From: Atopobiaceae bacterium
Lineage (GTDB): Bacteria > Actinomycetota > Coriobacteriia > Coriobacteriales > Atopobiaceae
Direction of reading: 5' to 3'
NCBI GenBank assembly: GCA_017652285.1
Contig: JAGCBF010000341.1
Coordinates: 1-64,000 of the forward strand
DNA: 64,000 nucleotides
The notes beneath the pieces were generated by a model. The model ran no database searches. It saw nothing but the letters and a program-made list of their open reading frames with translations, and was not told the DNA's origin. How positions within the stretch are numbered: the first letter of the stretch is position 1; each line of letters begins with the position of its first letter. This document shows, piece by piece, positions 12,296 through 32,120 of the stretch. A program made the translations under genes and the position numbers.

Positions 12296-12316
12296 ACGTT
12301 CCGACCCCTGTCTGGC

Positions 12317-12519
12317 GGCGTGCCATTTCGGGTGCGCGAAAGTGCACGTTTTTCCGAGGTTAGTGTAGTTTTTGGGTGCCGATTCGCCACGGGCGGAAAA
12401 GGTGCCCCGCGTTTGCGCAGGTAGAGCGGGCCATAAATAAAACTCCGTGAAAACGGAGACCGAAAAACTACACGAACCTCGACTTTTTGTGCGTTTTCGT
12501 GCATCCGTTTTGGCACGCC
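12317..12519. repeat. Large inverted-repeat element, copy 1
   Basis: Two 57-nt imperfect inverted arms (12317-12373 and 12463-12519, starting GGCGTGCCA and ending TGGCACGCC) enclose an 89-nt core. A homologous element lies at 30289-30491. The ~100 bp after the right arm (to about 12620, ending TTATTATGTTTGGGTAAT) also match the sequence after copy 2, but the arms plus core are in the opposite orientation relative to that flank. Confidence 0.8.
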
Positions 12520-30126: not shown

Positions 30127-30288
30127 AGCGCCTCCTCCCGCAATTCGCGACCCGCACCACAACATGTAGTGTACCCCACGCATTTGCGTCCCGAAAAAGG
30201 TGTGCTGTGGCACCCGGTTGGCAGGCGAGAAACTCATCGCATTCCAAAAGATCTTCTCGGGTAGGAGCTTCTCTGCTCCCCGCCCGGC

Positions 30289-30491
30289 GGCGTGCCAAAA
30301 CGGATGCGCGAAAACGCACGAAAAGTCGAGGTTAGTGTAGTTTTGCGGTCTTCGTTTTTGCGGGGCCAGATTCGCGGCACCCTCTACCTGCGCAAAAGCG
30401 GGGCATCTTTTCCGCCTGTGGGGATTTGGCGCCCAAAAACTACACTAACCTCGAAAAAACGTGCACATTCGCGCACCCGGAATGGCACGCC
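30289..30491. repeat. Large inverted-repeat element, copy 2
   Basis: Arms at 30289-30344 and 30435-30491 enclose a 90-nt core. The left arm of this copy matches the right arm of copy 1 (12463-12519) read in reverse, and the core reads CTCTACCTGCGCAAAAGCGG here but its reverse complement in copy 1. The right flank (to about 30592, ending TTATTATGCGTGGGTAAT) is in the same orientation in both. Confidence 0.8.
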
Positions 30492-30782: not shown

Positions 30783-31649
30783 CGCCGCAAACGAAGACGC
30801 AGGCATCCTCGCCCTCCTTGAATGCTACGAGCGCGAGCGGTGGTTTTGCTTTGAGATGCCTCCACAGGCAGACCCATGGGATCTGCCCTTCGTGCTACAC
30901 GAGTTCACCCAACGGAACGAGTTCACCGTTGACGCCCAGCGGAGCCTTCGTGGGTGCAGTCGCGGCTCGTACCAACGGAGCGACAGAACCTTGGCGAAGT
31001 GTTGCGCACAAACGGCCTCGACAGCTATGACGAGCTCCGACACTTGGAGCTGACGGACGGCAAATGCTCACAAGACGACTGTTATCTCGTGCCCATGGGA
31101 GAAGGGCAACTGCCCAACTGGTATCGGGAACGTCTGGCCTTGCGTGCCATCGACATTTACCCCCTCGAGCGCTTCAGGATACTCGCGTCGTTTAGGGACG
31201 GGTCGACGGCACTCTGTTACATGCGAGACATGCTTGCTGGAGAGCGGACGTTCGCACGCATCCTTGAGGATGAAACCATCTTCCGTCGCGCCGCCCTACA
31301 ACCTGGAGGCTATGGAGTTCGTTGGGGAAAGAGGCTACTCGTGTCATCGGACACTCTGCGAAGGCGGGGCCAGCCCGTCGCACTCGAAGCATCCGACATC
31401 GCCGAGCTGGTACGTCAGGCAGCCCTCGAAACCTCAGAGGTCGCCCAGCTCTTGGGATGCACCCGCCAGAACGTGAGCGACCTCGTTAGACGAGGGAAGC
31501 TCGTTCCGCTGAAGACATCGGCCCGCGGACCGCTGTTCCAGCGAAGCGACATATATGCACTTCTGGATTCGCGGGGTTATCAACGATCCGCCAAGCACGA
31601 TTGCATGGGAACGGCGCGTCTCGCCCCGCGAGAGCACCCTATTAAGTGA
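30760..31649 (+). pseudogene. DUF2442 plus helix-turn-helix protein, frameshifted
   Basis: Translation begins at a TTG (30760, after AAGGTGG) as KHFPLRNAANEDAGILALLECYERE...VLHEFTQRNEFTVDAQRS. It must shift by one frame near 30945-30952 to continue as WVQSRLVPTERQNLGEVLRTNG. The downstream frame holds a DUF2442-type segment (FRILASFRDGSTALCYMRDML...FARILEDETIFRRAALQPGG...VRWGKRLLVSSDTL, about 31165-31370) and then a MerR/excisionase-type HTH (TSEVAQLLGCTRQNVSDLVRRGKLVP, about 31430-31510) to 31649. If the shift is not a sequencing error, only the C-terminal part, from a GTG at 30954, could be made. The product would be a DNA-binding regulator, possibly antitoxin-like. Confidence 0.6.
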
Positions 31650-31926
31650 CACAGAGGCCCCGTTTCGGCCGTCGGATGTCACTTAATCGGTTTCGGTACC
31701 TGGCAAAACCGATTAAGTGACATCTCGGCCCAAAAATTGGCGTCTCGTGTCACTTAATCGGTCAATAGGCATAATATCTTGTATCACATGCGCCCGTCCG
31801 ACCTATTAAATGACATCGGACGGCCTTTTTCGGCCCTTCATGTCATTTAATAGGTTTGTGCTCCGGACGAAACTGATTAAATGACATCTTACCCCCGATT
31901 TTGGCAACTCGTGTCACTTAATCGGT
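31638..31926. repeat. Four tandem long palindromes (ATTAAGTGACA array)
   Basis: Units at 31638-31690, 31708-31762, 31801-31855 and 31871-31926 each have 14-17-nt arms around a 23-25-nt loop rich in GGCC. Unit 2 has ACCGATTAAGTGACA arms. Unit 3 has ACCTATTAAATGACAT with a perfectly matching opposite arm, so two changes are compensated. The first unit overlaps the 3' end of the HTH pseudogene. No coding sequence is credible here. Confidence 0.85.
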
Positions 31927-32067
31927 CGCGGCTCCTACCGCCGACTCGCGAGATACGCGCTGTACGGAGCGTGCCTTGGCGGGAACGGCGTAGCACGAGG
32001 AGGCCGCAGCGCTGCCTCGTGGGGACTCATGGAGTCATTCGCACCCTCCCGCTGCTGGCAGGCAACG

Positions 32068-32120
32068 AAACCTCCGAAGTTGCGTGCATGGCCTTCAGAC
32101 GCACGCAGTTTCGGAGGTTT
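32068..32120. repeat. Long hairpin, 20-nt arms
   Basis: AAACCTCCGAAGTTGCGTGC (32068-32087) faces GCACGCAGTTTCGGAGGTTT (32101-32120), with two central mismatches and a 13-nt loop. No T tract follows. Confidence 0.7.

What the first reader, a model, noticed from the sequence alone, without database searches (positions are those of the whole stretch)
31638..31926. Four tandem palindromes with compensatory arm changes
Four units, each with 14-17-nt arms of the ATTAAGTGACA type, follow one another. In unit 3 two arm positions differ from unit 2 (ACCGATTAAGTGACA versus ACCTATTAAATGACA), and the opposite arm has both matching changes. Compensation within an array means that pairing, in DNA or RNA, has been maintained or copied as a whole. 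The loops carry further GGCC/GGC pairing. The size and arrangement do not match a terminator, riboswitch or CRISPR array that I know.
Basis: seen in the sequence. Interest (0 to 1): 0.6.

Follow-up and report, generated by a model that had tools for sequence, protein, structure and literature searches.

The report
Nuclease-linked palindrome arrays scattered through genome
This stretch is one of about a dozen scattered copies of a strictly spaced eight-arm palindrome array whose arm sequence matches an array sitting beside an uncharacterised nuclease gene in the same gut-bacterium genome, and related species repeat the pairing with different arm sequences, which suggests an undescribed partnership between a DNA-cutting enzyme and its own repeat family.

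Summary
Eight ATTAARTGACA arms in alternating orientation lie at 31637-31926; the genome has 11 such loci, the complete ones with nearly identical spacing. Arms 2-3 and 6-7, across the short spacers, do covary strongly in two related species. The arrays are not transposase-linked REPs: the genome's larger RAYT-like (Y1) genes carry a different repeat. Instead, one copy sits 87 nt after the stop codon of a 342-aa protein with a Vsr/EDxHD-type nuclease fold. In eight species, 7 of 8 orthologous nuclease genes have such an array just after the stop codon and the eighth has it upstream. Arms differ by species but the architecture holds: four palindromes with centres 71/93/71 bp apart (93/93/93 in one branch). 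A second nuclease clade has 85-bp-spaced arrays directly 3', again each with its own arms. Dispersed arrays carry the arms of the resident nuclease in all six genomes checked. Best explanation: an undescribed nuclease/repeat pair that works like REP-RAYT but uses an unrelated enzyme. Binding, cutting and the route of spread are inferred, not shown.

The parts
31637..31651 (+). arm 1 (CCCTATTAAGTGACA)
   Evidence: same offset in the other loci
31677..31691 (-). arm 2 (ACCGATTAAGTGACA on the - strand)
31708..31722 (+). arm 3 (ACCGATTAAGTGACA)
31748..31762 (-). arm 4
31801..31815 (+). arm 5 (ACCTATTAAATGACA)
31841..31855 (-). arm 6
31872..31886 (+). arm 7
31912..31926 (-). arm 8
31675..31724 (.). 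inverted repeat made by arms 2 and 3 (19 bp perfect, 12-nt spacer); the kind of arm pair that covaries in related species
   Evidence: I1; covariation
31840..31887 (.). inverted repeat made by arms 6 and 7 (18 bp, 89% complementary, 12-nt spacer)
   Evidence: I4
31763..31800 (.). central linker between the two halves, conserved between most copies in this genome; one copy (L036) is 11 nt longer
31606..31636 (.). left flank resembling the left flank of several other copies
31927..31985 (.). right flank resembling the right flank of several other copies

Best explanation
The array is one dispersed copy of a repeat family that belongs to a specific nuclease. SHOWN: (1) the array is a unit of four palindromes (eight arms) with fixed spacing; it is found at 11 loci in this genome, six of them holding all eight arms; (2) one copy stands directly after the stop codon of a gene for a Vsr/EDxHD-type nuclease-fold protein; (3) closely related nuclease genes in other species stand beside an array of the same architecture but with different arms; (4) dispersed arrays in each genome checked carry the arms of that genome's nuclease-linked array; (5) between two sister species the arms change more slowly than the loops. 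INFERRED: the nuclease recognises the arms as double-stranded sites, probably several molecules on one face of the helix since spacing classes differ by about one or two helical turns; it cuts or nicks there; and copying of array DNA during repair or transposition founded and homogenised the family, with recognition sequence and enzyme diverging together between species. The pair would be a largely domesticated selfish element, like REP/RAYT but with an unrelated enzyme.
For: Copies and spacing: 11 loci; centre steps 71/93/71 in five complete G000 copies and 72/104.5/71 in a sixth; 71/93/71 within about 1 bp in G001/G002, G005 (L194) and G014 (L193) with different arms; 93/93/93 in G008-G010. 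Unrelated neighbouring genes at the copies. Linkage: P0001 gene with array 87 nt after the stop; array beside all 8 orthologous genes, seven on the 3' side and one (L196) on the 5' side. A second clade has 85-bp arrays 30-58 nt after the stop in the scan, and 14 of 15 members by reading the sequence. By one mechanical detector, 16 of 24 genes in the two clades against 0 of 40 other paralogues have an array (Fisher p = 1.5e-9); the two array types map to two groups of the tree, each supported 100/99. Cognate arms: G000, G001, G002, G005, G006, G014. Enzyme: profile match to homing endonuclease I-Bth0305I (E 9e-4 and 1.2e-3); AlphaFold2 pLDDT 91.5, pTM 0.90; Foldseek 3r3p probability 0.97. Arms constrained: 4.1% changed against 14.6% in loops and 8.2% in flanks (p = 2.6e-13 and 1.1e-4).
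Against: No clean empty site was found: seven G001 arrays have an orthologue in G002, and the one absence followed to base level looks like loss, with the first arm still present. So spread is old or slow and not demonstrated. Target duplications were not found. Whether the protein binds or cuts DNA is untested, and the Foldseek match is not significant by E-value (0.12). Many paralogues of the nuclease lack such arrays. The nuclease-linked copy in this genome is among the most divergent copies outside its arms.
Confidence: 0.62

Rival explanations
1. REP/BIME (REPIN) arrays spread by a RAYT, a Y1 (HUH) transposase.
For: Alternating inverted arms, intergenic location, species-specific sequence; Y1 genes occur in 15 of 16 genus genomes.
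Against: The two larger Y1 genes of this genome (C277, C340) have a different palindromic repeat at or near them (TGGCCGATTGGGGC...), and no ATTAAGTGACA arm within the fetched flanks. Single arms are not themselves palindromic. The arrays stand beside another gene family instead. The third, small Y1 match (C326) was not inspected.
Confidence: 0.07
2. Structured RNA: the array is transcribed (in the linked copy, as the 3' end of the nuclease mRNA) and works as a folded RNA, as a regulator or as a partner of the nuclease.
For: Very stable folds on both strands; position within about 90 nt of the stop codon in seven of eight clade-A loci; arms 2-3 and 6-7 covary; Vsr-like RAP domains bind RNA (own knowledge; one search lists mitoribosomal proteins at weak scores).
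Against: Arm sequence is conserved, not only pairing: most arm pairs (1-2, 3-4, 5-6, 7-8, 1-4) do not covary. Loops 1-2 and 3-4 are no more complementary within an array than between arrays. Spacing changes by 10-11 nt steps suit dsDNA. Most copies stand beside unrelated genes. No meaningful Rfam match.
Confidence: 0.15
3. Binding sites of a host regulator or chromosome-organising protein, with the nuclease gene next to one of them for reasons unrelated to recognition.
For: Arms conserved as sequence, helical-turn spacing steps, retention at orthologous sites.
Against: Does not explain why two separate nuclease clades each stand directly beside arrays with their own arms, or why one genome (G013) with several such nucleases has several arm families.
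Confidence: 0.1
4. Ordinary MITE of a DNA transposon.
For: About 0.3 kb core plus shared flanks repeated at several loci.
Against: No consistent terminal inverted repeat or target duplication; the linked gene is not a transposase by Pfam or NCBIfam.
Confidence: 0.06

Closest known systems
REP / BIME / REPIN with RAYT (PMC2817692, PMC3116915)
   Same: Inverted short sequences in regularly spaced alternating order in intergenic DNA; species-specific repeat sequence; a dedicated enzyme gene with the matching repeats beside it; dispersed copies without the enzyme.
   Different: The enzyme is a Vsr/EDxHD-type (PD-(D/E)XK-like) nuclease fold, not a Y1 HUH transposase; single arms are not palindromes; the array is a fixed set of four palindromes at 71/93/71 bp (or 85 bp in a second clade); about a dozen to a few dozen loci, not hundreds.
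EDxHD homing endonuclease I-Bth0305I (PDB 3r3p)
   Same: C-terminal catalytic-type domain (sequence profile E about 1e-3; fold match probability 0.97).
   Different: No intron or intein context was seen; the protein is longer, with a large extra N-terminal part, and is tied to a palindrome array present at many loci.
Vsr mismatch endonuclease (PDB 1vsr) and DUF559 proteins (PF04480)
   Same: Same broad nuclease fold; DUF559 matches below its cut-off in three homologues.
   Different: No methyltransferase partner was sought or seen; the repeat partner has no counterpart in Vsr as far as I know.

Membership tests
REP/REPIN-RAYT | cognate Y1 (PF01797) transposase gene flanked by the repeat | tested here: not met
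   Y1 genes at C277 and C340 carry another repeat nearby; no ATTAAGTGACA arms there (C326 not inspected, but one search lists no arm on it)
REP/REPIN-RAYT | each REP is itself an imperfect palindrome | tested here: not met
   read from the sequence: arm ACCGATTAAGTGACA has no evident internal palindrome
REP/REPIN-RAYT | inverted pairs, intergenic, dispersed copies | tested here: met
MITE | terminal inverted repeats and target-site duplications | tested here: not met
   no consistent terminal repeat; no duplications recognised by eye
EDxHD / Vsr-type nuclease (the linked protein) | sequence and fold relation to a solved member | tested here: met
   the fold match is by probability and TM-score, not by E-value
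EDxHD / Vsr-type nuclease (the linked protein) | DNA cleavage at the arms | not testable with these tools
   needs biochemistry
Homing element | gene inside an intron or intein and copied into a cognate empty site | tested here: inconclusive
   no intron or intein noticed at the linked loci (not searched systematically); the one absence examined looked like a loss
CRISPR array | direct repeats with unique spacers beside cas genes | tested here: not met
   arms alternate in orientation; no cas gene among the neighbours read
Rfam RNA family | match above gathering score | tested here: not met
   only mir-1791 at 27 bits (gathering 75), a chance hairpin

The most novel reading that the evidence does not exclude
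A general class of two-part elements in Atopobiaceae in which a Vsr/EDxHD-type nuclease and a palindrome array evolve as a matched pair: each nuclease lineage fixes an architecture (71/93/71, 93/93/93 or 85 bp), and each nuclease has its own arm sequence, which its dispersed arrays share. The enzyme family would have diversified its site specificity many times within one genus; in a stronger and less likely form, the 3' array would also be an RNA partner of the enzyme.
Probability: 0.5. Interest if true: 0.85.

Novelty: categorically new. Interest (0 to 1): 0.74.

Why it matters
REP/RAYT is the textbook case of a bacterial repeat family run by a domesticated enzyme. A second case with an unrelated enzyme would show that such pairings arise more than once, and the many naturally diverged nuclease/arm pairs in one genus would make the recognition code of a Vsr-type nuclease directly testable. 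I found no report of it in the open-access papers searched, which is a limited search.

Tried and rejected
The arm sequence was not found outside this genome in 140 family genomes, genome contigs or viral contigs. RAYT link rejected. Within-unit compensation rejected. Inter-locus replacement of arrays, suggested by fast loops, was not supported: orthologues are the best matches. Empty-site tests gave a likely loss and a rearranged locus. Terminal inverted repeats in the flanks were too weak to claim. The first structure model, without paralogues, was poor; with 27 sequences it was good. Terminator reading rejected: the scan found none inside the array. The nuclease was not found in viral contigs.

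Full report
What is there. Window 31637-31926 holds eight 15-nt arms (consensus ACCGATTAAGTGACA) in alternating orientation. Offsets of the core arm starts are 0, 36, 71, 107, 164, 200, 235, 271. The array folds much more stably than shuffled sequence on both strands. The core ATTAARTGACA occurs 56 times in the genome (3.05 Mb, 364 contigs), the reversed control 0 times, and every occurrence is in one of 11 array loci: C265 (the window), C338, C77, C39, C222, C317, C341, C345, C239, C245, C301. Several are cut by contig ends. Six of these loci hold all eight arms. Neighbouring genes differ from locus to locus. Several copies share extra flanking sequence on one or both sides. None of the other 139 family genomes searched has the arm pair.

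Compensation. With one array per orthologue pair, 2-3 and 6-7 remain the two strongest of 28 arm pairs. This may reflect selection or template-switch correction of close inverted repeats.

Same architecture, other arms. Scanning relatives' DNA for repeated inverted arms showed arrays of the same layout with different arms. Centre-to-centre steps: G000 71/93/71 (L036: 72/104.5/71); G001 and G002 about 71/93/71; G005 72/93/72; G014 71/94/71; G008, G009, G010 about 93/93/93. Steps differ by about 11 or 22 bp, near whole helical turns; G013 two-palindrome elements include loops 10 nt longer. The number of independent spacing changes is small, so phasing is suggestive only.

The linked gene. The divergent copy in this genome, L035:2938-3219, lies 87 nt after the stop codon of a 342-aa gene (P0001, L035:3315-4340; downstream sequence). 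Homologues occur in all 16 genus genomes, 5 to 15 matches each. The eight genes of the same clade (G000, G001, G002, G014, G005, G008, G009, G010) all have an array beside them: within about 90 nt after the stop in seven, and about 200-260 nt upstream in G010. A homologue in Parafannyhessea umbonata 105184 has repeated inverted sequence downstream that I read by eye only. A second clade has 85-bp (once 96-bp) arrays starting 30-58 nt after the stop where the scan detected them; reading the sequence adds further members, 14 of 15 in all, the exception being L244, whose ORF is shorter. These arrays share a central TATTTTA-like motif while arms differ from gene to gene. The remaining paralogues gave no array in the same scan: 16 of 24 against 0 of 40, Fisher p = 1.5e-9. 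The two array types fall in two groups of the protein tree, each supported 100/99 against the other. The groups were drawn up after seeing arrays, and several proteins are near copies, so the p value is a guide.

Cognate arms. Dispersed arrays carry the arms of the nuclease-linked array in G000, G001, G002, G005, G006 and G014, six of six genomes where both were in hand; G005 arms differ slightly (CCTGACAAAGCGG against CTGACAAAGTG).

The protein. Pfam shows only sub-threshold DUF559, E 0.03-0.19, in three of the array-linked homologues and nothing for P0001 itself. NCBIfam gives nothing meaningful and PADLOC only weak homing-endonuclease matches, E 0.015-0.029. Profile searches of solved structures give the homing endonuclease I-Bth0305I catalytic domain, E 9e-4 and 1.2e-3. 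AlphaFold2 with 27 sequences gives pLDDT 91.5 and pTM 0.90. Foldseek gives that domain probability 0.97, TM 0.64 of the target, but E 0.12; Vsr (1vsr) scores TM 0.44. I call it a Vsr/EDxHD-type nuclease fold; activity is not shown. Named hosts of homologues are Atopobiaceae or Coriobacteriaceae MAGs, two of them titled as sheep gut, and P. umbonata.

Constraint and history. Across seven orthologous array pairs of G001 and G002, arms changed at 26 of 636 sites (4.1%), loops and spacers at 188 of 1292 (14.6%), flanks, which include coding sequence, at 430 of 5233 (8.2%) (Fisher p). Orthologues are each other's best matches. So arrays persist in place with the arms constrained; the single absence followed in detail looks like loss, not an empty site.

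Not REP/RAYT. The larger Y1 genes of this genome have a different repeat at or near them, the TGGCCGATTGGGGC family that is also common in the window, and no array arm in the fetched flanks.

Reading. The simplest account of linkage, cognate arms and arm constraint is that each nuclease recognises its array's arms. How this founded and maintains dispersed arrays is inferred by analogy with REP/RAYT; no step of it was observed. I rate the system 'categorically new' because the tested defining features of the nearest known kinds were not met; the comparison with REP/RAYT is about how it may work, not membership.

Noticed in passing
window 11654-58535, ten copies: TGGCCGATTGGGGCTAGGCCCCTTTCGGCCA palindromic repeat, the repeat found at or near this genome's own Y1 (RAYT-like) genes on contigs C277 and C340.
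   Followed up: partly
window 32068-32120: Another inverted repeat (AAACCTCCGAAGTTGCGTGC / GCACGCAGTTTCGGAGGTTT) about 140 nt right of the array; similar sequence lies beside the array copy in L030.
   Followed up: no
window 12306-12377 and 30278-30349: A 72-nt repeat, 76% identical, containing GAGGTTAGTGTAGTTTT.
   Followed up: no
window 30954-31649: A 231-aa ORF with a weak HTH_17 match whose stop codon (TAA) is formed by the first arm of the array.
   Followed up: no
L104 and L111 (G006): Long arrays of AAATGCACG arms with 73-nt period and many units; possibly a third array type, partner unknown.
   Followed up: no
L089, L091, L092 (G013:C40): A gene encoding another protein flanked on both sides by near-identical CTATCCTTCTCAAA-type arrays; it did not match the nuclease profile at E 1e-4.
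   Followed up: partly
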